53,573 bases of DNA from Akkermansia muciniphila. Lineage in GTDB: Bacteria > Verrucomicrobiota > Verrucomicrobiia > Verrucomicrobiales > V1-33. The DNA lies in assembly GCA_945861415.1 (NCBI GenBank), contig CAMAUV010000031.1, positions 1 through 53,573 on the forward strand, read 5' to 3'. The notes under the pieces were generated by a model. It was not told the origin of the DNA. It saw only the letters and a program-made list of their open reading frames with translations, and ran no database searches. Below are positions 6,541 to 32,898 of the stretch, piece by piece. Within the stretch, counting starts at the first letter, position 1. The number at the start of each line of letters is the position of its first letter. A program made the position numbers and the translations under genes.

Positions 6541-7884
6541 ATGAATTCTGACGACGCCAAACTCATCGCCCTCGCCATCGCGGGCGTGGGATTACTGGTG
6601 TTGCTCATCACGAAGCTGAAAATGAACCCTTTCATCGCCCTCCTGCTGGCAGCCCTGCTCGCGGGCGTTGGTGGCGGGATGGCGATGACGCCGGTGTTGA
6701 AGGCCTTTGGGGACGGCATGGGTGCCACGCTTGGCGGAGTGGCCGGGGTGATCGGGCTCGGCGTGATGCTGGGCAAACTGCTGGCGGAATCCGGGGGGGC
6801 CGGGGTGCTGGCGCGGCGATTCAATGCCTTTTTTGGCCCCCGCTACGCCGTCTGGTGCATCATGACGCTGGCGATCGCCGTGGGGCTTACCACATGGTTT
6901 GCGGTGGGCATGCTTTTGCTGCTGCCCATTCTTATTACGTTGACAAAGGAATCCGGGCGGCCCTTTTTGCTGCTGGCTATTCCCCTCATTTCCTGCCTGT
7001 CAGTGATGCACGGCCTCATGCCGCCGCATCCGGGCCCGGTGGTGGCGGTGAGTGCACTCAAAGCGAACAATGGTCTCGTTCTGCTCTGGGGATTCCTCAT
7101 TGGCATTCCCATCGCAATCCTCGGTGGCCCGCTATTTGCCCGGTTGGTGGTGAAGCGGATGGAAGTTCCCGCGCCGGAATGGAATGTGGAAGAAACCACG
7201 GCCGCCCGCTCTCCGGGTTTTGGCCTCACCCTTTTTTCCATGCTGCTGCCGGTGGCACTCATGCTGTGTGCCACCCTTGCGGAACTCACGCTCCCGGAAA
7301 AACACGGACTGCGGGCCGCGGCGGCCTTCGCTGGCCACCCTGTCATGGCGCTGACCGTCGCCGTAATCTTTGCCACATGGTCGCTCGGCACCCGCTGCGG
7401 TCATCCACGGGAGCGGCTACTCAAATTCACAGAATCCAGCATTGCCACCATTGGCATGACCCTGCTGGTGGTGGGAGCTGGCGGTGGATTCGCCCGGGTG
7501 CTGAAGGAAGCCGGTGTCGCCGCCAGCATGGGGCACATGGCGCAGGCATGGCAACTGCCGCCTCTGATCTTTGGCTGGCTGGTCGCGGCTTTTATCCGCG
7601 TGGCCACCGGCTCCGCCACGGTTGCCATCACTACCGCCGCCGGAGTTCTGGAGCCGCTGCTGGCTTCAATGCCGGGCGTGAATCGCGAGCTTCTCGTCAT
7701 CTCCATCGGCTGCGGGTCACTTTTCCTTTCCCACCTCAATGACGGAGGCTTCTGGATCGTGAAGGATTGTCTGGGCCTGACGGTAAATCAAACGCTCTGC
7801 ACATGGACCGTCACCGAGACCATCGTCGGTCTCTCGGGACTGGCGCTCACGCTGCTGGCCGATGCCCTTTTACAGACGCTCTAA
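6541..7884 (+). CDS. GntP-family gluconate/organic acid:H+ symporter
   Basis: Polytopic inner-membrane permease of 447 residues, a normal GntP length, with about 12 hydrophobic segments. Family signatures include the loop SVMHGLMPPHPGPVVA near residue 160, the C-terminal segment RVATGSATVAITTAAG and SHLNDGGFWIVKD. GntP members import gluconate or related sugar acids with protons. No gluconate kinase or sugar-acid gene is adjacent, so the substrate (gluconate, glycerate, ketodeoxy acids) stays open. It is divergent from the desaturase gene (251 bp between starts) and converges on leuD with a 12 bp gap. No Shine-Dalgarno motif precedes the ATG. Confidence 0.9.
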   Translation: MNSDDAKLIALAIAGVGLLVLLITKLKMNPFIALLLAALLAGVGGGMAMTPVLKAFGDGMGATLGGVAGVIGLGVMLGKLLAESGGAGVLARRFNAFFGPRYAVWCIMTLAIAVGLTTWFAVGMLLLLPILITLTKESGRPFLLLAIPLISCLSVMHGLMPPHPGPVVAVSALKANNGLVLLWGFLIGIPIAILGGPLFARLVVKRMEVPAPEWNVEETTAARSPGFGLTLFSMLLPVALMLCATLAELTLPEKHGLRAAAAFAGHPVMALTVAVIFATWSLGTRCGHPRERLLKFTESSIATIGMTLLVVGAGGGFARVLKEAGVAASMGHMAQAWQLPPLIFGWLVAAFIRVATGSATVAITTAAGVLEPLLASMPGVNRELLVISIGCGSLFLSHLNDGGFWIVKDCLGLTVNQTLCTWTVTETIVGLSGLALTLLADALLQTL

Positions 7885-7896
7885 GAGCCAGCCTTT

Positions 7897-8499
7897 TCAG
7901 CTCTTCATGTAGTCCAGCGCGCCAGCTGTGGCGGCCACGGCCTTTTCGCCTTCCAAGAGGTCCGCGATGGCATCCCAGTGACCTGAGATCAGGGCGTCAC
8001 GCGCCGTATCCGGGATACTGACTGTGAAGTTCTCGCTTCCGAAAAACACACGGTTATTGTCCACATCCACGGTCACCGTGACAGCAGGATCCGCTTCCAC
8101 CGCAGCGCGCAGACGCTGCATGTCCTCCGCCGTGGCGACGGCGCAGGGAATCCCCAGCGTGGTGCAGTTGCCGAAAAAGATTTCCGCAAAACTTTCCGCA
8201 ACGACCGCACGGAATCCGTATCGGTAGATCGCCTGCGGGGCGTGCTCGCGGGAACTGCCGCAGCCAAAATTCACGCCGCTAAGCAGGATGCTCGCGCCTT
8301 TGAAGCGGGGATCATTGAGCGGGTGCTCCCTGTCCGATCCATCAGCGTTTTTGCGAACATCGTAAAAAAGGTATTCACCCAGTCCGTCAAAAGTGATGCA
8401 CTTCATGAATCGCGCCGGAATGATGCGGTCGGTATCGATGTCGGAGCCAGGAACATAAACGGCGGGGCCGGAGACTTGCGTGATTTTTTCAAGAGCCAT
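7897..8499 (-). CDS. leuD: 3-isopropylmalate dehydratase small subunit
   Basis: Small swivelling-domain subunit of isopropylmalate isomerase in leucine synthesis; it needs the iron-sulfur LeuC subunit, which is not in this window. Motifs are DIDTDRIIPARF near the N-terminus, GCGSSREHAPQAI and FAEIFFGNC. About 200 residues is normal for LeuD. Three in-frame ATGs are available (8529, 8508, 8499); the last is chosen because MALEKIT matches the usual N-terminus, but no Shine-Dalgarno sequence decides between them. Being separated from leuC, leuA and leuB is unremarkable. A homoaconitase-type small subunit is the main alternative. Confidence 0.88.
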   Translation of the reverse strand: MALEKITQVSGPAVYVPGSDIDTDRIIPARFMKCITFDGLGEYLFYDVRKNADGSDREHPLNDPRFKGASILLSGVNFGCGSSREHAPQAIYRYGFRAVVAESFAEIFFGNCTTLGIPCAVATAEDMQRLRAAVEADPAVTVTVDVDNNRVFFGSENFTVSIPDTARDALISGHWDAIADLLEGEKAVAATAGALDYMKS

Positions 8500-8574
8500 G
8501 CGTTTCATTGCGCTGACCCATTGCTCCATGCAACGGAAAAGCGGGTAAGCGCCGCTGCCGGCGCCGGTGCGGAG

Positions 8575-9015
8575 TCAGGGCAGGGGCACTTCGTAATACT
8601 CCAGCGCCCATTCTTTCATGTAACGCACCCGGGAGGGGATGATGCAATAAATAATGAGTGCCGGATTGTCCGGAGTGCCAAGGTAGCGGCGGAGCAGGGG
8701 ATTGTTATTCCAGATGTCTGCCAGCACGACGGCATCGGTGACGATTTTTGCGGTGCCGGTGATGCGCACCTGATCGTGCGCTGAGTCAAGGTAGCAAAGT
8801 TCTACCTGCGGATTGGCTGCGATTTCCGTTGTCTTGCCGTAGCCCCGCAGGTTGGCCACGTAGATCGTAAAGCCGTCCACTTTCACCGGCGAAACCGGGC
8901 GGACGCGCGGTTGGTTGCCATCCATGGTGGCGAGTACGGGAAATTTTGCATCAGCGATGACTTTGTGGGCCAGTGCGGGAAGTTCCTGTGGGGAAGGCGG
9001 AGCGGGCGGATTCAT
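8575..9015 (-). CDS. Pyridoxamine 5'-phosphate oxidase-fold (PPOX/FMN-binding) protein
   Basis: A 146-residue single-domain protein of the split-barrel flavin family. Seen are FPVLATMDGNQPRVRPVSPV (substrate/FMN strand), a central strand with VELCYLD and ITGTAKIV, and the C-terminal pair RVRYMKEW and LEYYEVPLP. Members bind FMN, F420 or haem and act as general stress or small oxidoreductase proteins; the true pdxH product is longer and carries different motifs, so this is not called pdxH. The ATG (9013-9015) overlaps the stop of the upstream SanA-like gene as ATGA, indicating translational coupling. Function unknown beyond the fold. Confidence 0.75.
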   Translation of the reverse strand: MNPPAPPSPQELPALAHKVIADAKFPVLATMDGNQPRVRPVSPVKVDGFTIYVANLRGYGKTTEIAANPQVELCYLDSAHDQVRITGTAKIVTDAVVLADIWNNNPLLRRYLGTPDNPALIIYCIIPSRVRYMKEWALEYYEVPLP

Positions 9016-24174: not shown

Positions 24175-26475
24175 ATGCCCGCGGCAGAGTGCGGAATTAT
24201 CTATTTATCCCGCCCGCTTTTTCTCTCTGCGCTCTGCATTCTGTCCTCTGCGCGGGGCGTGGAAGTCGTGAACGCGGGAGCGGGATCGTATCTTAAGGGA
24301 CTGCCGCAGGGAGCCAAGGGGCCGCCTCGGGAAATCTGGCGCACGAAGGAACTCGCGCATTTGCCCATGCCGACGAATGACTGGTGGAGTTCGCTGGCGT
24401 GGGTGCCGTTTTCCGATGCCATGTTCCCGCACCCGCTGGCGCTCAAGGCGGAGGCGGGCGGGCTGCGCGTATCGTTTCCAGGAGCCAATATCACGGCGAA
24501 CAACGCCGCGATTTTTGCCGGGCTCGGAGACGATCTTGTATTGGGGCACTCTGCGGTGCCGGCATTCACCGATGCTAAAGTCGCGGGCTGGAGCGACTGG
24601 TTTGTCACGGCGCAGATGGGAGAAGTGGCGCGAGGGCTCACACTGACGTTCGGGCACGGATCGCCGTTTATTTTTGCCACGGTCACAGGCGGCGCGCCGG
24701 TGGTCACGTTCAAGCAGGCACCGGTAATTTTCGCCGGAAAGGAAACCGATGCGGTGCTCGGCGTGCGGGTGGGGAAGAGCGCTTATGGATTGTTTGCGCC
24801 CGCGGGTTCGACGTGGAGCGGAACAGGCACTCCGCGGCTGGAGGCGAAGACGAACGGCAAGTCGTGGTTTTCGCTCGCGGTGCTGCCGGATGAGAAGCCG
24901 GAGACTCTGGCGATGTTCGTGAAGGTGGCGCACCATCATGTGACGGAAAGCAAAGTCGTCTGGAGCTATGACGAAAAGCAGGGGCGGGTGACGACGGGAT
25001 TTCGTTTTGAAATTAAAGCCCGCGAGGGCAGCGGCGAAGACACGCTTTTCGGCCTCTATCCGCATCAGTGGCGCTCAGCGGACGCAAAGCTAACCGGACA
25101 CAGCTATGCCTCAGTGCGCGGGCCGATGAAGCTGGCGTCAGGCGCGGGATTCACAACTACCTCCGCGCTCCCGCCGGTGCTGCCCTCGCTGCCGCTGACG
25201 GAAAATCTGAAGCCAGAGGAATTGAGTGCATGGATCGCCGCAGACCTCGCGGGCAAACCCCAGCTCACTGGCGACACCTACTGGCTTGGCAAGCAACTGG
25301 GCAAATGGGCGACGCTGCTGCCCATTGCCGAGCAGGCGGGGGACAAGGCCGCGTTGGCGGAGTGTGATCGCCGCATTCGCACGGTGTTGGAGAATTTCCT
25401 TGCAGCCAGCGGTGCCGGCGGCGCGGTGAAGCGCGAGGGATTTTTCGCCTACGATCCGCTTTGGGGCACACTCATCGGGTTTCCTGCCAGCTTTGGCAGC
25501 GACGACCAGCTCAATGATCATCACTTTCACTACGGCTACTTTTTGCGCGCCGCGGGCGAGATCGCCCGACGCGATCCTGCATGGGCAAAGAAGCACTCGG
25601 AAATGCTTCAATTGATCGTGCGCGACATCGTGAGCCCGCGACGCGACGATGCCATGTTCCCGTTTCTCCGCTGCTTCGATCCTTATGCCGGGCACAGTTG
25701 GGCCAGTGGCCACGCGAAGTTCGGCGACGGCAATAACAACGAGTCGTCCAGCGAGGCGGTGAACGCATGGTTTGGCCTGCTGCTGCTGGGCGAAGCCACG
25801 GGCGACAAGCCGCTGCGCGATCTCGGCGCGTGGCTGCTGGCCACAGAAGTCGCGGCCGTCGAAGACTATTGGTTCGATGTGCGCGATGACCTGCACCCGG
25901 TAGCCTATCCGCCCTCTGTGGTGACGATGGTGTGGGGTGGCAAAGGCTCAAACGGCACGTGGTTCAGTGCGAATCCAGAGGCCGTGCACGGCATCAACTT
26001 TCTGCCCGTCACCGGTGCGTCCCTATACCTCGGACGCTGGCCGGATTATGCCGGGAAGAACTTCGACGCCCTCGTGAAGGAGAATCTGGCGGCGGACCAA
26101 AAAGACGCCGCCGCCAAAAACAAACCAGTGCCAACCCACGATGGCACGGGTTTCAACGAATGGGCGGACGTGCTCTGGATGTATCGCGCGCTGAGCGACC
26201 CGGCTCACGCCGCCCGCCTCTGGCAGGCGCGCCCAGCGGACTTCAAACCCGAAGCCGGTAACTCCCTCGCGCAAACCGGCGCGTGGATCGCCGCATTCTC
26301 CGCTCTGGGCACGATCGATCGCACCGTGACCGCCGATGCGCCCTTCACCGCATGTTTTTCCCGCGATGGCAGGAAGACCCACGTGGCATGGAACATCGGA
26401 AGCACAGCCCGCACCGCAACCTTCAGCGATGGCGCAAAAGTGCAGTGCCCGCCGAATTCAGTGGCGCGGAAGTAG
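24175..26475 (+). CDS. Glycoside hydrolase family 81 endo-beta-1,3-glucanase
   Basis: A 766-residue secreted enzyme predicted to cut beta-1,3-glucan (laminarin, callose, curdlan). A hydrophobic N-terminal segment (about residues 10-28) fits a signal peptide. The N-terminal beta-sandwich carries PMPTNDWWSSLAW; the catalytic alpha-barrel holds GSDDQLNDHHFHYGYF (about 441-456) and FGDGNNNESSSEAVNAW (about 516-532). E523 and E527 of the latter and the aspartate of NDHH match conserved acidic positions of GH81. The gene starts 30 bp after the Gfo/Idh/MocA gene and is probably co-transcribed. The family call rests on these motifs. Confidence 0.88.
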   Translation: MPAAECGIIYLSRPLFLSALCILSSARGVEVVNAGAGSYLKGLPQGAKGPPREIWRTKELAHLPMPTNDWWSSLAWVPFSDAMFPHPLALKAEAGGLRVSFPGANITANNAAIFAGLGDDLVLGHSAVPAFTDAKVAGWSDWFVTAQMGEVARGLTLTFGHGSPFIFATVTGGAPVVTFKQAPVIFAGKETDAVLGVRVGKSAYGLFAPAGSTWSGTGTPRLEAKTNGKSWFSLAVLPDEKPETLAMFVKVAHHHVTESKVVWSYDEKQGRVTTGFRFEIKAREGSGEDTLFGLYPHQWRSADAKLTGHSYASVRGPMKLASGAGFTTTSALPPVLPSLPLTENLKPEELSAWIAADLAGKPQLTGDTYWLGKQLGKWATLLPIAEQAGDKAALAECDRRIRTVLENFLAASGAGGAVKREGFFAYDPLWGTLIGFPASFGSDDQLNDHHFHYGYFLRAAGEIARRDPAWAKKHSEMLQLIVRDIVSPRRDDAMFPFLRCFDPYAGHSWASGHAKFGDGNNNESSSEAVNAWFGLLLLGEATGDKPLRDLGAWLLATEVAAVEDYWFDVRDDLHPVAYPPSVVTMVWGGKGSNGTWFSANPEAVHGINFLPVTGASLYLGRWPDYAGKNFDALVKENLAADQKDAAAKNKPVPTHDGTGFNEWADVLWMYRALSDPAHAARLWQARPADFKPEAGNSLAQTGAWIAAFSALGTIDRTVTADAPFTACFSRDGRKTHVAWNIGSTARTATFSDGAKVQCPPNSVARK

Positions 26476-26890
26476 GTGCGGCGGGCACTGGGAGGATTTG
26501 GCGAAAACTACGATGCATAATACAGCTGTGATTAAAATTTGAGTCCCTGATATACACGGGTATACAGCATTTCGATTTGCCCAAATTACGATGCAAAATA
26601 ACCTGCAGAGACTCTTTGCTTCATCTGTGTTCGGTAGAGCCGCAGCGCACCGTTCGTCACGTCGCAGAGGCAGTCCACCGCCATTAGCCCGACGGAGGCT
26701 GTGTGAAGCTGACCAGATTGAGACCGGGGGCGAAAGTCTGCACTACAGGACCGCTTTTTGTGCGGCGCTGAGGCGGGGGCGCGGCGGGGGAGGGAGGGTG
26801 ATGTGCAGGCGCTCGAGTAGAAGGCGCACGTCGTCGTTGGGTTGTTTATGGCTCGGCAGCCTTAGTACGCGATGGTCGGGGGTAGCGGGT
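26476..26890. other. Non-coding gap with a possible transposase C-terminal remnant
   Basis: No complete gene is seen. On the minus strand, from about 26890 to a TAG at 26742-26744, one frame reads LRLPSHKQPNDDVRLLLERL then a proline-rich end. This looks like the tail of a transposase, but it is too short to name a family. The remaining bases hold only short unsupported frames. A long palindrome follows at 26891. Confidence 0.3.
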
Positions 26891-26938
26891 GCTTCCAGCC
26901 CACAGGAATTTGGTTTAGCATGTGGGCTGGAAGCCCAC
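26891..26938. repeat. REP-like palindromic element upstream of hisA
   Basis: A perfect 14 bp inverted repeat (GCTTCCAGCCCACA at 26891-26904; TGTGGGCTGGAAGC at 26921-26934) encloses 16 bases. Nested in its right arm is a second hairpin, GTGGGCT-GGA-AGCCCAC (26922-26938). This nested arrangement is typical of REP/BIME elements. It lies 60 bp before the hisA start and may also act as a leader structure. Confidence 0.6.
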
Positions 26939-26997
26939 GCTGCGATTTTCTAAAGACGTTGACGCGCCGCTGCGTCAGCGCCACGGCTGGGGAGATG

Positions 26998-27777
26998 ATG
27001 ACTCGGTTTCGTCCATGTATCGACCTCCACGAGGGGCGCGTGAAACAAATCGTCGGTGGCACTCTCTCCGACGACGGGGCCGGGCTGCGCACGAATTTCG
27101 TGAGCGAACATCCCCCGTCGTGGTTTGCTGCACTGTATAAGAGTGATGCGCTCACCGGTGGCCACGTTATCAAGCTTGGGTCAGGCAATGACGCCGCCGC
27201 CCGAGAAGCGCTGGCGGCGTGGCCGGGAGGGTTGCAAATCGGCGGCGGTATCAGCGCGGAAAACTCCGCGGATTGGCTGACCGCGGGCGCGTCGCATGTA
27301 ATCGTGACTTCGTGGTTATTTTCTCCAGAGGGCCGGTTTTTGCATGAACGGCTGGAGGCGCTGGTCAAATCGGCGGGCCGCGACCGGCTGGTGATTGACC
27401 TCTCCTGCCGCCGGGATGATGATGGCGGCTGGACGGTGGCCATGAACCGCTGGCAAACGCGCACCGACCTGCGTGTGACGCTAGCGGCGCTGGATTCTCT
27501 CGCTGGGCAATGCGCAGAATTCCTGATTCACGCCGCGGATGTGGAGGGCCAGTGCCGGGGGATGGACGAGGATTTGCTCCGACTGCTAGGCTCGTGGGGG
27601 AAAATCCCGGTCACTTACGCTGGCGGCGCACGAAATCTGGACGACCTAGCGCTCGCGCAGCGCCTGAGCGGAGGAAAAGTGGACGTCACCATCGGCAGCG
27701 CGCTGGATATTTTTGGCGGCATCGGGCTGAGCTACGCGGATTGTGTGGCATGGAATCGGCGCAAGGTTAGCCCCTAA
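26998..27777 (+). CDS. hisA: HisA-type isomerase of the eukaryotic (HIS6) lineage
   Basis: Phosphoribosylformimino-AICAR-ribotide isomerase of histidine synthesis, about 259 residues in one barrel. The sequence follows the yeast/plant type and not the usual bacterial HisA: it opens with RFRPCIDLHEGRVKQIVGGT and continues with SHVIVTSWLF, RLVIDLSCRRDDDG, TVAMNRWQTRTDL, EFLIHAADVEG, VTYAGGARNLDDLALAQRLS and DVTIGSALDIFGG, all positions shared with HIS6 as I recall it. The start is placed at the second of two adjacent ATGs, with GGGGAG just upstream; starting at 26995 is equally possible. No other his gene is nearby, so it is not in a histidine operon. Identity is secure; the transfer history is inference. 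Confidence 0.9.
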   Translation: MTRFRPCIDLHEGRVKQIVGGTLSDDGAGLRTNFVSEHPPSWFAALYKSDALTGGHVIKLGSGNDAAAREALAAWPGGLQIGGGISAENSADWLTAGASHVIVTSWLFSPEGRFLHERLEALVKSAGRDRLVIDLSCRRDDDGGWTVAMNRWQTRTDLRVTLAALDSLAGQCAEFLIHAADVEGQCRGMDEDLLRLLGSWGKIPVTYAGGARNLDDLALAQRLSGGKVDVTIGSALDIFGGIGLSYADCVAWNRRKVSP

Positions 27778-28219
27778 CAACTCACTTTCTCAGTCCTGCC
27801 TCTCGCCACTGATCGTCCTCGCACTGGCTCAATTCCCGATTTTTGTCCGGCAACTGGGGGTGGAAGCGTTTTGGGCGCCACTAAGTGCTTAAATCCTGTT
27901 AGGAATTAGCTAGGGTGGAATTTTCACTCTTACGCAGCCGCGGATGACAATTTCGTCAGATTTCAAATTGGATCGCAGTCTGTTAAGCCTGATGAACCCC
28001 CAAATTGCTGGACTTGTGGCGCATAAGGGGGCTGCAAGCCTTGATTTCTATAGCGATTTGGCCGTCATGTTTAGGAGAGGTTAAGAAAATCAAGGGCGTG
28101 CAGGGAAAAAGCTGAAATCAACTAGAATTTTTAAGTGTTTTGGCGCGATTTTAGTTCGGGCAGGCAAGTGAAATTTTGGGAGAAAAGTTCTACGCAAGTT
28201 TAGAATCTTGTTGCCATGA

Positions 28220-28235
28220 CCACATAATGTTGTGT
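28220..28235 (+). promoter_or_regulatory. Candidate NrdR box 1
   Basis: CCACATAATGTTGTGT resembles the NrdR-box consensus (acaCwAtATaTwGtgt), with a matching right half TTGTGT and a good left CA. Its start lies 32 bp from that of the second site, the usual three-turn spacing of paired NrdR boxes. Confidence 0.45.
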
Positions 28236-28251
28236 ATGTTACCCCGCACCT

Positions 28252-28267
28252 CGCAATATCTAGGGGT
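28252..28267 (+). promoter_or_regulatory. Candidate NrdR box 2
   Basis: CGCAATATCTAGGGGT matches the NrdR core CwATATaTwG except for one base (C for A at position 9), with weaker outer positions. It is 161 bp before the nrdB start codon. With box 1 it forms a tandem pair at 32 bp spacing. Confidence 0.45.
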
Positions 28268-28428
28268 TAGATTCAAAACCCTGAGCAAAATTCATAATTT
28301 CCACACATTTCGCGAAGTCCGCTAAAATCGCTATAACGCAGCCTTCCCAATTCTGTAAATTCTCAGTGATTCTAATTTCTTAAAAGCCTTGTTCCTGCCC
28401 ACTTTAACACCACTCGACCAGACCAACC

Positions 28429-29511
28429 ATGGAAACTAGTTTCACCGTCGGCAACAAAACCTTCCTTCTCGACCGGGATAAAGCGGAAGCCGCATTTAAT
28501 GCCAAACGTGTTATCAACGGGCGTGACAGCATGGCCTTCAATCTGCTCCCGCTGAAATACTCATGGGCTTACGACCTCTACCGCACGATGAAGGTCAACC
28601 ATTGGGAGCCGGAAGACATCCAGATGCAGCAGGACATCCAGCACTGGAAAGGCACAGATATTACGGACAACGAGCGATGGATCATCCGTATGGGTATTGG
28701 CTACTTTTCCGCCGCTGAGGGAATTGTGGGGGACAACATTCAGCACGTGGTGCGGGAAATGGTAACGGCTCCGGAATTGAAACTGGTTCTCGGCCGGCAC
28801 GCGCATGAGGAAAACATCCATGCCGACAGCCTTCTCTACATGGTTTCCAGCCTCGGTATCAATCCGCACGACTGCGAAGCCATGTTTGAGCAAATCCCCA
28901 GCATCCTGCGCAAGAATGAGTTTGTCTCGGGGAACAGCCGGTCGCTCCGCCGCGACCTTGATTTGACCAAAACAGAGAACAAAAAGCTGCTGGCGAGGAA
29001 CATCTTCCTTTTCGGCCAGTGCATGGAGGGCACCCAGTTCTACGGGCTTTTCGGCATGATCCTCAGCCTTTACCGTCAGAACAAGTTCCCCGGCATTGGT
29101 CAAATGTTCCGCTACACCCTGCGGGATGAGTCGAACCACATTGAGGTCTTTCGCAACCTTTTCATGGACCTCATCGAGGAGAATAAAGAAATCTGGACGC
29201 CTGAATTCCGGGAGGATTTGCGCAATCTCATGCGCGAAGCCGTGGCTCTCGAAAAGGACTTTATCCGCGACTGCCTGCCGGTGAACAGCGTCGGCCTCAG
29301 CCTAGATGAGTTTCTCATTTACATTGACTACATCGCAGACCGCCGCCTCGAAGGCGTGGGTCTTGAGCCGCTGAACGCCCCCATCGTCAATCCCCTGCCA
29401 TGGCTCGCCGAACTGATGGACATCAAGAAGGAGCAGAACTTCTTCGAAGGCAAAGTCACGGACTACCAGAAGTCCAGTTCCCTTGTGACGGTGCCCGACG
29501 ATGACCTGTAG
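28429..29511 (+). CDS. nrdB: Class I ribonucleotide reductase beta subunit, subclass Ic-like
   Basis: Cytoplasmic radical-generating subunit that partners NrdA to make dNTPs. 360 residues, ferritin-like. The metal ligands are all visible: E97 (FSAAEG), E128 and H131 (HEENIH), E200 (CMEGTQFYG), E234 and H237 (DESNH). The residue four after H131, where Escherichia coli has radical Tyr122 and Chlamydia has Phe127, is Leu135 (HADSLLY). Glu at the first ligand (Asp84 in E. coli) also matches the chlamydial form. W59 and a C-terminal Tyr346 suitable for radical transfer are kept. This predicts subclass Ic chemistry with a metal-stored (Mn/Fe-type) oxidant and no tyrosyl radical. nrdB precedes nrdA, 111 bp apart. 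The function call is secure; the cofactor is inference. Confidence 0.95.
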   Translation: METSFTVGNKTFLLDRDKAEAAFNAKRVINGRDSMAFNLLPLKYSWAYDLYRTMKVNHWEPEDIQMQQDIQHWKGTDITDNERWIIRMGIGYFSAAEGIVGDNIQHVVREMVTAPELKLVLGRHAHEENIHADSLLYMVSSLGINPHDCEAMFEQIPSILRKNEFVSGNSRSLRRDLDLTKTENKKLLARNIFLFGQCMEGTQFYGLFGMILSLYRQNKFPGIGQMFRYTLRDESNHIEVFRNLFMDLIEENKEIWTPEFREDLRNLMREAVALEKDFIRDCLPVNSVGLSLDEFLIYIDYIADRRLEGVGLEPLNAPIVNPLPWLAELMDIKKEQNFFEGKVTDYQKSSSLVTVPDDDL

Positions 29512-29622: not shown

Positions 29623-32600
29623 ATGATCGGCAAAAACCACGTCGAAGAAGACCTCAATTTGAAGCACATCGTCCGCTCCGGTCGGAGTGAGTCGAAGCCG
29701 CGCTTTAACTGGGCGGACGAATCCGTCAGTGCCGGCGCTCCCGTGCCCTATATTCCCTTCGTCGACGGCGGGCAGCAGAAAACTTTCAGTTCCGGGGACA
29801 TTGCCACTATCATAGGCGAGGCGCTCACGGACCTCATGCTCTCGCGCCAGGAGGACGAAATTTTCACCGACAAAAACCGGCGGCTGGTGAGCCAGATCGC
29901 GCAGGCGGTCTCCGGTGAGATTACCGCGAAATCCCGTGGAAACGGGGAAGACGACCGTGCCCCGGTTTCTTCTGTAGAGGTAACCCGTATCATTGAGCGC
30001 GCCCTAATCCGGCACAATGCGTATGATCTTGCCCGCAGCATCGTTACGCGCTACCAGCCAGACAGTGCCGCCCAAGACGAAAACATGTTTCAACTCAACT
30101 CCGCCGCTCCCATGACCTGCCGCGTCATTCGCCGCAATGGTCAGGTCGTGGCGTGGAATCAGGACAAAATCGAAGTCGCCATCCGCAAGGCCTTCCTTTC
30201 TCAGGAAATGGACAGCGCCCCCGCCGTGGACATCGCCAACAGCATCACCGCCCGCATCCAGGCCGATGGCATTCAGATGATCGGCATCGAGGAACTCCAA
30301 GATCTGGTGCAGGAGGAACTGATGAAGAGCGGCTATTATAAAGTGGCCGCCGCTTACGTCATCTATCGCGCCCACCGGAAGGAAGTGCGCGCCAAGTCCG
30401 ACGAAGATCAGCGCCACCTCGCCACCGACCGCCAAGACAGCATGATCCTCGTGAAGGGCGATGACGGCGCGAGTTTCCTTTGGGACGGCCTCGACCTCCG
30501 GAAGCGCATCGACTTCGCCGCCATGGGGTTGGAGCTCTGCATCTCCCGCGAGCAAATCGAGACGGAGCTTCGCCGCTCGCTCTTCCCCGAGATGTCCCAG
30601 AAGGACCTGAACAACACCATCATCCTTAATGCCAAGGTCCTCATCGAGCGGGATGCCGACTTCTCCAAATTTGCCGCCCGCATCCTGCTCAGCTTCATCT
30701 ACGAGGAAGTGCTCGGCTGGAACATCGTCACTGACGGCGTCTCTGCGCTCGGTGCCTTCCACCGCCGCGCCTTCAAGGTGAACATCCAGCGCGGCGTGGA
30801 GATCGACCGCATCAGCCCGCGCCTGCTGGAGTACAAACTCGACAAGCTTGCCGCCGCCCTCGATCCCACGGCGGACTTTGAGTTCGACTTTCTCGGCATC
30901 CAGACCCTCTACGATCGCTACTTGGTTGTGGACAAGACGAGCAAGAAGCACCGCCGCCTTGAGACCCCGCAACTCTTCTGGATGCGTGTGGCTATGGGTC
31001 TGTTCGTCGCAGAGAAAAAAGGCACCCGCGGTGACCACGTCATCGCTCTCTACCAGTTGTATAAGAGCCGCCGGTTCTGCTCGTCAACACCTACCTTGTT
31101 CAACAGCGGCACCAACCACAGCCAGCTCTCCTCCTGCTACCTCTACAAAGTGGACGACAACATCGAGTCCATCATGCTGCGCGGCATCGCGGAGAATGCC
31201 TTCCTTTCAAAGTGGGCCGGCGGACTCGGCGGAAGTTGGACCGCCGTTCGCGGTAGCGGTGGCTACATCAAAGGCACGAACGGAGAAAGCCAGGGCGTCA
31301 TTCCATTCCTCAAGCTGCACAACGACCAACTCATCGCCGTCAACCAGGGCGGCAAGCGCCGCGGATCCGGCTGCGCCTATTTGGAGACGTGGCACAACGA
31401 CATCGAAGACTTCCTCCAGCTTCGCGTGAATACCGGCGACGAGCGCCGCCGCACGCACGACATGAATACCGCCAACTGGATCCCCGATTTGTTCATGAAG
31501 CGCATGGAAGCCCGCCAGAACTGGACTCTCTTCCGCGCCAATGAATGCACTGACCTGCACGAACTCTACGGCCGCGCCTTCGAACAGCGCTACGAAGAGT
31601 ATGAAGAAAAAGCCCGCCTCGGCGAGATCTTCGGCAAAGAAGTTCCTGCCATCGAACTCTGGAAGAGCATGCTCAAAATGCTTTTTGAAACCGGTCACCC
31701 GTGGATTACCTTCAAGGATCCCTGCAACGTCCGCAGCCCTCAGGACCACTGCGGTGTTATCCACAGCAGTAACCTCTGCACGGAGATCACGCTCAACACC
31801 AGCAAAGAAGAAACCGCCGTCTGCAACCTCGGCTCCGTCATTCTCGAAAGTCACCTCAAGGCCGACGGCTCCATTGATCATGATAAGCTCAGCGTCACCG
31901 TCCGCACCGCCGTTCGCGCGCTCGACAATGTCATCGATATCAACTTCTATCCCACCGAAGCTGCAAAGACCGCCAACAACCGCCACCGTCCCATCGGGCT
32001 TGGCGTCATGGGGCTCGCCAATTGCCTTTACATGAAGAACATCCCGTTTGGCAGCGAGGCCGCTGTTGAATTCAACGATGAGGTCATGGAAGCCGTGGCC
32101 TACTACGCCTACGAGGCCAGCAGCGAACTCGCCGCAGAGCGCGGCACTTACTCCACCTACAAGGGCTCCAAGTGGGATCGCGGTCTGCTCCCGCAGGACA
32201 CCGTGGACCTCCTTGAACGCGAGCGTGGCATTCCCGTGGAAGTCCCGCGCGGCGGTCGTATGGACTGGACTCCGCTCCGCGAGAAGATCAAGGCCCAAGG
32301 CATGAGAAACAGCAACGTGCTCGCTATCGCCCCCACCGCCACCATCTCGAACATCATGGGCTCCACCCCCTGCATCGAGCCCCAGTTCAAAAACCTCTAC
32401 GCCAAGAGCAATCTCAGCGGCGACTTCACCATGCTCAATCCCTTCCTCGTCTGCGACCTAAAGGCCCGCGGTCTCTGGAATCAGGATATGCTCGACCGCC
32501 TCAAATATCACGACGGTGAACTCGGCGAGATCGACGAAGTCCCCGCCGATCTGAAGGCCAAGTATCTCACCGCCTTCGGTATTGACCACCAATGGATCAT

Positions 32601-32898
32601 CGCGGCCGCCGCCCGCCGGCAGAAATGGATCGACCAAAGCCAAAGCGTAAACCTCTGGCTCGCCACCCCCGACCTAAAGACACTGAGCCACATGTATCGC
32701 GGCGCATGGCGCAGCGGTCTCAAGACCACCTACTACCTCCGCAGCACTAGCGCCTCCAACATCGAAAAGGCCAGCATCAACGTGCAGAAGGAAGTCCGCA
32801 TCACCGGCGCCGCGCCGCGGGAATACACGGAAGAGGAAAAGGTGTCCTGTAGCATCGAAGCCATGCGCAACGGTGGGACCTGCGAAGCCTGCCAGTAA
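29623..32898 (+). CDS. nrdA: Class I ribonucleotide reductase alpha subunit with duplicated N-terminal ATP-cone region
   Basis: Catalytic subunit, about 1091 residues from the ATG at 29623, longer than the ~760 of E. coli NrdA. An ATP-cone allosteric domain is clear at about 165-255 (CRVIRRNGQVVAWNQDKIEV to AAYVIYRAHRKEVR). A second, more divergent cone-like region lies before it at about 45-147 (EVTRIIERALIRHNAYDLAR). In the barrel are RFCSSTPTLFNSGT (redox Cys), NLCTEITLN (thiyl-radical Cys) and TAVCNLGSV (partner Cys). The C-terminus CEACQ supplies the shuttle cysteine pair. An in-frame TTG at 29554 is less likely as the start. Extended N-terminal cones also occur in chlamydial NrdA. Confidence 0.95.
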   Translation: MIGKNHVEEDLNLKHIVRSGRSESKPRFNWADESVSAGAPVPYIPFVDGGQQKTFSSGDIATIIGEALTDLMLSRQEDEIFTDKNRRLVSQIAQAVSGEITAKSRGNGEDDRAPVSSVEVTRIIERALIRHNAYDLARSIVTRYQPDSAAQDENMFQLNSAAPMTCRVIRRNGQVVAWNQDKIEVAIRKAFLSQEMDSAPAVDIANSITARIQADGIQMIGIEELQDLVQEELMKSGYYKVAAAYVIYRAHRKEVRAKSDEDQRHLATDRQDSMILVKGDDGASFLWDGLDLRKRIDFAAMGLELCISREQIETELRRSLFPEMSQKDLNNTIILNAKVLIERDADFSKFAARILLSFIYEEVLGWNIVTDGVSALGAFHRRAFKVNIQRGVEIDRISPRLLEYKLDKLAAALDPTADFEFDFLGIQTLYDRYLVVDKTSKKHRRLETPQLFWMRVAMGLFVAEKKGTRGDHVIALYQLYKSRRFCSSTPTLFNSGTNHSQLSSCYLYKVDDNIESIMLRGIAENAFLSKWAGGLGGSWTAVRGSGGYIKGTNGESQGVIPFLKLHNDQLIAVNQGGKRRGSGCAYLETWHNDIEDFLQLRVNTGDERRRTHDMNTANWIPDLFMKRMEARQNWTLFRANECTDLHELYGRAFEQRYEEYEEKARLGEIFGKEVPAIELWKSMLKMLFETGHPWITFKDPCNVRSPQDHCGVIHSSNLCTEITLNTSKEETAVCNLGSVILESHLKADGSIDHDKLSVTVRTAVRALDNVIDINFYPTEAAKTANNRHRPIGLGVMGLANCLYMKNIPFGSEAAVEFNDEVMEAVAYYAYEASSELAAERGTYSTYKGSKWDRGLLPQDTVDLLERERGIPVEVPRGGRMDWTPLREKIKAQGMRNSNVLAIAPTATISNIMGSTPCIEPQFKNLYAKSNLSGDFTMLNPFLVCDLKARGLWNQDMLDRLKYHDGELGEIDEVPADLKAKYLTAFGIDHQWIIAAAARRQKWIDQSQSVNLWLATPDLKTLSHMYRGAWRSGLKTTYYLRSTSASNIEKASINVQKEVRITGAAPREYTEEEKVSCSIEAMRNGGTCEACQ

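What the first reader, a model, noticed from the sequence alone, without database searches (positions are those of the whole stretch)
28429..29511. Ribonucleotide reductase R2 with Leu in place of the radical tyrosine (subclass Ic-like)
Seen: all six metal ligands are present (E97, E128, H131, E200, E234, H237), but the position four after H131, which is Tyr in class Ia and Phe in Chlamydia, is Leu135. The first ligand is Glu, also as in Chlamydia. Established: subclass Ic R2 proteins with Phe, Leu or Val there store the oxidising equivalent in a metal centre (Mn/Fe). Inference: this organism makes dNTPs without a tyrosyl radical. A Leu variant has been studied far less than the chlamydial Phe form.
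Basis: partly seen in the sequence, partly recalled or inferred. Interest (0 to 1): 0.7.

Follow-up and report, generated by a model that had tools for sequence, protein, structure and literature searches.

The report
Tyrosine-less, leucine-type ribonucleotide reductase R2
The only ribonucleotide reductase found in this bacterium's draft genome has a leucine where the classic enzyme keeps its radical tyrosine, so it likely starts making DNA building blocks from an oxidised pair of metal ions instead of a tyrosyl radical.

Summary
Window 28429-29511 encodes a 360-residue NrdB (R2) with ligands E97, E128, H131, E200, E234, H237 and Leu135 at the radical site; nrdA follows. Leu is fixed: 81 of 81 close loci, 121 of 121 close proteins, 120 of 120 proteins of a second clade 49-58% identical, with all six Leu codons in use over 163 loci. 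Of 125 genomes of the phylum with an R2 match, 84 carry an intact Leu type, 13 Phe, 27 Tyr; Leu and Phe rows have Glu as first ligand, Tyr rows Asp. In the window's genome and in 13 single-contig relatives it is the only R2, with one R1 and no class III enzyme, so it presumably works. Closest solved structure: Chlamydia trachomatis Mn/Fe NrdB. Likely mechanism: metal-centred initiation as in subclass Ic; the metals are untested. Leu was already named in sequence definitions of Ic, so this is a new variant of a known kind. In passing: a conserved, ligand-less R2 paralog in relatives.

The parts
28429..29511 (+). nrdB, R2 (beta) subunit of class I ribonucleotide reductase, 360 aa, Leu type
28831..28833 (+). 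codon CTT of Leu135, at the radical-tyrosine position (E. coli Y122, C. trachomatis F127; numbers recalled)
28717..28719 (+). codon of Glu97, first metal ligand (Glu as in Ic and Id, Asp in Ia/Ib)
28810..28821 (+). codons of E128-N-I-H131, second and third ligands (E127 just before is the NrdBz-type second-sphere Glu)
   Evidence: pattern from PMC6370689 Table 4
29026..29028 (+). codon of ligand Glu200
29116..29118 (+). codon of Thr230, in the radical pocket (Ile in the Phe and NrdBza rows; Thr in class Id)
   Evidence: class Id Thr191 from PMC8463856 section 7
29128..29139 (+). codons of E234 to H237, fifth and sixth ligands; D233 just before lies on the radical-transfer path
28603..28605 (+). 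codon of Trp59, radical-transfer Trp (C. trachomatis W51, E. coli W48; numbers recalled)
29464..29466 (+). codon of Tyr346, C-terminal radical-transfer Tyr (E. coli Y356 equivalent, number recalled)
29623..32898 (+). nrdA, R1 (alpha) subunit, 1091 aa from ATG 29623 (the longer open frame starts at TTG 29554), with Cys residues, Tyr-Tyr dyad and C-terminal CxxC by reading
   Evidence: motif names recalled
30121..30384 (+). ATP-cone domain of NrdA (PF03477)
27778..28428 (+). 651-base stretch upstream of nrdB without an ORF of 90 aa or more in the list; no NrdR-box-like match

Best explanation
Window 28429-29511 encodes the NrdB (R2) subunit of a class I ribonucleotide reductase that has Leu135 in place of the radical tyrosine and Glu97 as first metal ligand, and it is predicted to start catalysis from an oxidised two-metal centre, most likely Mn(IV)/Fe(III) as in Chlamydia, instead of from a tyrosyl radical. 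The six-ligand site would bind one Mn and one Fe, react with O2 and store the oxidising equivalent on the metal in site 1, next to the place where the tyrosine would sit (inferred). During turnover the hole would pass from the metal centre through W59, D233 and Y346 to the Tyr dyad and active-site Cys of NrdA (path residues shown by sequence, transfer inferred). The Leu135/Thr230 pair would close off, or leave slightly open and polar, the pocket that holds Tyr or Phe in relatives (inferred). NrdA carries an ATP cone, so overall ATP/dATP control is expected there (inferred). In this organism the enzyme is the only ribonucleotide reductase detected.
Against: No metal, EPR or activity data exist here. 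The Leu clade is not inside the Phe group: it is separate from Phe + NrdBza (SH-aLRT 100 for Leu, 97 for Phe + NrdBza, and the fork that joins them with another Tyr group is unresolved; 98/97 and 94/72, the latter not starred), so a shared cofactor cannot be read from clade membership. A single non-Tyr clade is not rejected either (AU p 0.374; 0.055 with long branches removed). Thr230 (Ile in all 16 Phe and 7 NrdBza rows) is a class-Id feature, which leaves a dimanganese centre open. The genome is not closed.
Confidence: 0.75

Rival explanations
1. The Leu type uses a dimanganese Mn(III)/Mn(IV) centre, activated by superoxide, as class Id does.
For: Glu97 and Thr230 match class Id, where Thr191 of F. 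johnsoniae (four before ligand E195) holds the pocket Tyr by a hydrogen bond (PMC8463856 section 7; ligand numbers from PMC6370689; Thr294 in L. blandensis, PMC6754362 passage). Row L170, which has the class Id pattern Glu/Tyr/Lys, also has Thr there. Class Id needs no NrdI, and none was found.
Confidence: 0.15
2. A protein radical forms on another nearby aromatic residue (for example Y137, Y205 or Y229), so the radical-bearing residue has moved, not vanished.
For: Y137, Y205 and Y229 lie near the ligands by sequence; Y137 is Tyr in 81 of 81 loci and 121 of 121 proteins of the window's clade.
Against: Y137 is His in 120 of 120 proteins of the second Leu clade, and C. trachomatis, which has no tyrosyl radical, also has a Tyr there. 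Y205 (90% or more) and Y229 are shared with Phe-type and Tyr-type relatives, so they are no replacement special to the Leu type.
Confidence: 0.06
3. It is an R2-like ligand-binding oxidase (R2lox), not a ribonucleotide reductase subunit.
For: R2lox also has Glu as first ligand and no radical Tyr; weak NCBIfam hits at 24-54 bits against cut-offs of 194-346.
Against: nrdA is adjacent. Of seven R2lox marker or cross-link residues named in PMC3824934 (passage; mapped by their distance to the ligands), one is met (Val100) and six are not (A96, I130, F204, F208, N236, G196). The C-terminal Tyr is present. No other R2 was found in the genome.
Confidence: 0.01
4. It is a decayed or inactive R2.
For: Loss of the radical Tyr inactivates E. 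coli class Ia R2 (recalled).
Against: The ligands and radical-transfer residues are intact, Leu is fixed with synonymous turnover, and it is the only R2 in 13 single-contig genomes.
Confidence: 0.02

Closest known systems
Class Ic R2 (NrdB) of Chlamydia trachomatis
   Same: Same six ligands with Glu first, no radical Tyr, same radical-transfer residues, best sequence and fold match in the PDB
   Different: Leu instead of Phe, Thr230 instead of Ile in the pocket, 36% identity over the fold alignment, separate clade
RNRdb group NrdBz: NrdBza (Tyr) and NrdBzc (Ic)
   Same: Second-sphere Glu127/Asp233 pattern; NCBIfam NF005550/NF005544 above cut-off; the NrdBzc rule in PMC6370689 accepts Phe, Leu or Val
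   Different: In the trees here the Leu clade lies outside the Phe + Tyr rows that I assign to NrdBz
Class Id R2 (F. johnsoniae, L. blandensis)
   Same: Glu first ligand, Thr in the pocket, metal-based oxidant (inferred here)
   Different: No pocket Tyr, no Lys after the first ligand, ATP cone in NrdA
Marine viral 'subclass Ic-like' R2 (PMC12918982)
   Same: Lacks the radical Tyr
   Different: Those have Ile or Val; that paper lists Phe or Leu for the Ic references (passage)

Membership tests
Class Ic (NrdBzc) | No Tyr at the radical position | tested here: met
   Leu135
Class Ic (NrdBzc) | Glu as first ligand; E/E/H/E/E/H; second-sphere Glu and Asp | tested here: met
   pattern from PMC6370689
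Class Ic (NrdBzc) | Phe at the radical position, as in the characterised enzyme | tested here: not met
   Leu in all members sampled. The RNRdb rule accepts Leu, so this bars 'same as the chlamydial form', not the Ic rule
Class Ic (NrdBzc) | One clade with chlamydial R2c | tested here: inconclusive
   Separate branch; joint non-Tyr clade not rejected, AU p 0.374 and 0.055
Class Ic (NrdBzc) | C-terminal Tyr and radical-transfer Trp/Asp | tested here: met
   W59, D233, Y346
Class Ic (NrdBzc) | Mn(IV)/Fe(III) cofactor and activity with Mn + Fe + O2 | not testable with these tools
   needs purified protein
Class Id (NrdBi) | Tyr in the pocket with Glu first ligand | tested here: not met
   Glu97 present, Tyr replaced by Leu
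Class Id (NrdBi) | Thr hydrogen-bond partner in the pocket | tested here: met
   Thr230 in the same column
Class Id (NrdBi) | Lys four after the first ligand (subgroup with solved structures) | tested here: not met
   Gly101; PMC6754362 says only a subgroup has Lys
Class Id (NrdBi) | NrdA without ATP cone | tested here: not met
   PF03477 in NrdA
Class Ia/Ib | Radical Tyr with Asp first ligand | tested here: not met
   Leu135, Glu97
R2lox | R2lox marker residues and Val-Tyr cross-link pair | tested here: not met
   6 of 7 not met, Val100 met (sequence; markers from PMC3824934)

The most novel reading that the evidence does not exclude
The Leu135/Glu97/Thr230 R2s of Verrucomicrobiota are a separate metal-oxidant subclass of class I ribonucleotide reductase that lost the tyrosyl radical independently of Chlamydia, combining an Ic-like metal site with an Id-like pocket, so that its metal pair or its way of activation differs from both; it has carried whole lineages as their only ribonucleotide reductase.
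Probability: 0.25. Interest if true: 0.75.

Novelty: new variant of a known kind. Interest (0 to 1): 0.5.

Why it matters
The characterised subclass Ic enzyme is the Phe form of an intracellular pathogen, and its lack of a tyrosyl radical has been read as a possible answer to host nitric oxide (PMC4390871, passage). A Leu form that is the only ribonucleotide reductase detected in many genomes, with relatives whose record titles name ponds, lakes and a bog, argues against host defence as the general reason. It also supplies natural material to test what the radical-pocket residue does and what selects Mn/Fe, Mn/Mn or Fe/Fe. Leu with Thr230 is a combination absent from the 16 Phe and 7 NrdBza rows examined.

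Tried and rejected
Rejected: R2lox (6 of 7 markers not met); a radical on Y137 (His in the second Leu clade); class Ia/Ib. An early slip: W46 was tabulated as the radical-transfer Trp. By the chlamydial numbering (W51, recalled) it is W59, present in every row with a letter there. The Glu that replaces W46 in 120 of 120 second-clade proteins is therefore not a loss of the path.

Led nowhere: an NrdR-box pattern found no match in the window; the scan near nrdB found 4 promoter-like sites (2.2 expected) and 10 terminator-like sites (5.8 expected), not used as evidence; in the phage and plasmid collections every matching record's best place is below 60% identity; a test of linked change of Tyr and Asp had only 2 independent pairs on starred branches and no power; a paper on Verrucomicrobium essential genes does not mention nrd in its main text; a chlamydial Mn/Fe paper has no text on F127. 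Pfam on ten other window ORFs showed ordinary genes or no family. The PDB Foldseek job for the paralog was not collected, and locus L245 was fetched and not used. Yeast Rnr4 chains did not appear among the 50 rows listed for the paralog model.

Literature on Leu-type R2: searches listed no paper that I could recognise, by title and start of abstract, as purifying one; the library is open-access, and Hogbom 2004 and 2010 were not seen. Two searches likewise showed no tandem, ligand-less bacterial R2 paralog; class Ie, a metal-free bacterial R2 with a DOPA radical, is known and is listed there (PMC11846895, listing only), but the paralogs seen here have no Tyr at the radical position.

Rows dropped: L167 (wrong frame) from both trees; seven further long-branch rows and 12 near-duplicates from the careful tree; L117 (frameshifted), L218 and L219 (fragments) counted as frameshifted or undetermined; L232, a weak 22% match, is counted with the Phe rows; three paralog rows set aside from the 249 Leu rows.

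Changed on checking: the number of Leu rows with all ligands (87), the wording of the Leu clade's place in the tree, and the paralog's start in L115.

Full report
WHAT IS THERE. Window 28429-29511 (+) is one open frame of 360 residues, Pfam Ribonuc_red_sm at 219.6 bits, NCBIfam NF005550 (beta subunit) at 313.1 bits, just above its cut-off of 309. A script read E97, E128, H131, L135, E200, E234 and H237. The alignment to C. trachomatis R2 in the PDB places L135 opposite its Phe. nrdA follows at 29623-32898, with barrel, all-alpha domain and one ATP cone, NF005544 at 1230.9 bits, and by reading the Tyr-Tyr dyad, the expected Cys residues and a C-terminal CxxC (motif names recalled). No tRNA was found in the window. 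The nearest named relatives are Verrucomicrobiales and Verrucomicrobiaceae metagenome bins, up to 86% identical and 89%, so I take the organism for a member of Verrucomicrobiota.

IS LEU REAL AND FIXED. Of 82 loci held at the time, 81 had a hit and all 81 have Leu; 121 of 121 proteins (the query included) have Leu. A search with a divergent relative listed 120 proteins, 49-58% identical to the window protein: 120 of 120 have Leu, Glu97 and Thr230. Both protein lists are the best 120 of several thousand hits, so they show the near field. Over 163 loci at 65% identity or more the Leu codon is CTC 61, CTG 58, TTG 19, CTT 14, CTA 7, TTA 4. The residue is kept while the codon turns over, even through TTR codons that are one step from Phe. 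I read this as selection for Leu.

HOW WIDE. In 387 genomes drawn from the window's phylum, 125 have a match to the protein. I fetched the matched places and aligned 134 rows from 130 loci. By genome: 84 carry an intact Leu type (81 alone, 2 with a Tyr type too, 1 with a ligand-less paralog), 1 has a frameshifted Leu gene, 13 have Phe, 27 have Tyr (25 alone), 2 are fragments. Rows: 87 Leu-Glu-Thr230, 13 Phe-Glu-Ile, 1 weak Phe-Glu-Leu, 28 Tyr-Asp (24 Ile, 4 Ser at 230); the other 5 are the paralog, the two frameshifted halves and two fragments. So in this sample the first ligand follows the pocket residue without exception: Asp with Tyr, Glu with Phe or Leu. Two plasmid rows outside the phylum, L168 and L170, pair Glu with Tyr, the pairing described for class Id.

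IS IT THE ONLY ENZYME. The window's genome (93.9% complete) has one PF02867 match, the neighbouring nrdA, one PF00268 match, no NrdD and no NrdI. Of 80 Leu genomes searched (of 84), 61 have a single PF02867 match, 14 have NrdD, and 54 have a single PF02867 and no NrdD. So 26 of 80 have, or may have, a further enzyme. Of the 14 genomes in one contig, 13 are in the set of 54, and those 13 have exactly one PF00268 match each; the other, G186, has a second barrel. Leu-type R2 therefore seems to support growth by itself in several lineages (inference from gene content).

THE POCKET. Against 16 Phe and 7 NrdBza Tyr rows, the 249 Leu rows differ at 49 columns by the script's thresholds; at most of these the Phe and Tyr rows agree with each other. 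One lies in the pocket: the column of E. coli I234 (yeast I269, named as a pocket residue in PMC3824934, passage) is Thr in 249 of 249 Leu rows and Ile in all 23 others. Thr at this place is the class Id partner of the pocket Tyr (PMC8463856 section 7, read in full; PMC6754362, passages). In the Leu type there is no Tyr to hold, so its role must differ. The class Id Lys is absent (Gly101). The other pocket residues, F204 and F208, are unchanged.

TREE. With columns 97, 135 and 230 left out, the Leu clade has SH-aLRT 100 and a Phe + NrdBza group has 97; the fork that joins these two and a further Tyr group is unresolved, the root is at the midpoint, and inside the second group Phe rows fall in three places around Tyr rows. 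With long branches removed: Leu 98/97, Phe + NrdBza 94/72 (not starred), single non-Tyr clade AU p 0.055, single Phe clade AU p 0.075; with all rows the single non-Tyr clade has AU p 0.374. Four changes of state are needed. By my reading the same number results from several losses of Tyr or from a loss and a regain, and the tests do not settle it. Earlier work with other sampling also found R2c polyphyletic (PMC3824934 passage on Lundin 2010), though PMC3824934 itself found it monophyletic with few sequences.

MECHANISM. Shown: ligands, pocket residues, radical-transfer residues W59, D233, Y346, paired nrdA, no other enzyme found. Inferred: O2 activation at a Mn/Fe pair, storage of the hole on the metals, transfer to NrdA. 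The pairing rule (Phe/Glu in Ic, Tyr/Glu in Id, Tyr/Asp in Ia and Ib) is from PMC8463856; Leu/Glu fits the Ic side. A dimanganese centre stays open because of Thr230.

KNOWN OR NEW. PMC6370689 assigns NrdBz members with Phe, Leu or Val to Ic by rule (passage); PMC12918982 lists Phe or Leu for Ic references (passage); PMC3824934 cites Hogbom 2010 for Leu, Ile and Val (passage); class O R2-like proteins also have Phe or Leu (PMC9531940, passage). So Leu is documented by sequence. No paper in the listings of searches looked like a purification of a Leu type; the library is open-access only. What I met in none of the passages read is the Leu/Thr230 signature, its hold on the phylum, the sole-enzyme status and the separate branch. 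I therefore call it a new variant of a known kind.

Noticed in passing
L115:6455-7516 (beside nrdB 7565-8650); L233-L244; proteins P0243-P0315, P0317-P0319, P0336, P0346: Conserved R2 paralog that lost metal ligands (mostly QERE[V/I]R or GQQEAR) and the C-terminal Tyr but keeps the DDDL tail (62 of the first 65), encoded next to nrdB in all 15 genomes identified as having it; a possible bacterial beta' subunit like yeast Rnr4.
   Followed up: partly
L113:4447-5529 and L114:6896-7993: A different tandem second R2, about 53% identical to the window protein, with all ligands and Leu kept but Y229 changed to Asn, between nrdB and nrdA.
   Followed up: partly
P0122-P0241, L116: Second Leu clade, 49-58% identical, with Glu at column 46 and His at column 137 in 120 of 120.
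   Followed up: partly
G351:C13:22953-25703: The NrdA barrel match spans 2751 bases where most others span 1611, in one open frame of 1520 codons: an insertion of about 380 codons, perhaps an intein.
   Followed up: no
window 26872-27777: A HisA that matches the eukaryote-type model TIGR02129 (371.9 bits, cut-off 229.3) far better than the usual model TIGR00007 (55.6 bits).
   Followed up: no
window 24175-26475: Glycosyl hydrolase family 81 protein, C-terminal domain at 187.2 bits.
   Followed up: no
L049: A Leu-type nrdB contig filed under a Rubrivivax metagenome bin, 79% identical: probably a binning error.
   Followed up: no
window 27778-28428: A 651-base stretch before nrdB without an ORF of 90 aa or more in the list; no NrdR-box-like site.
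   Followed up: no
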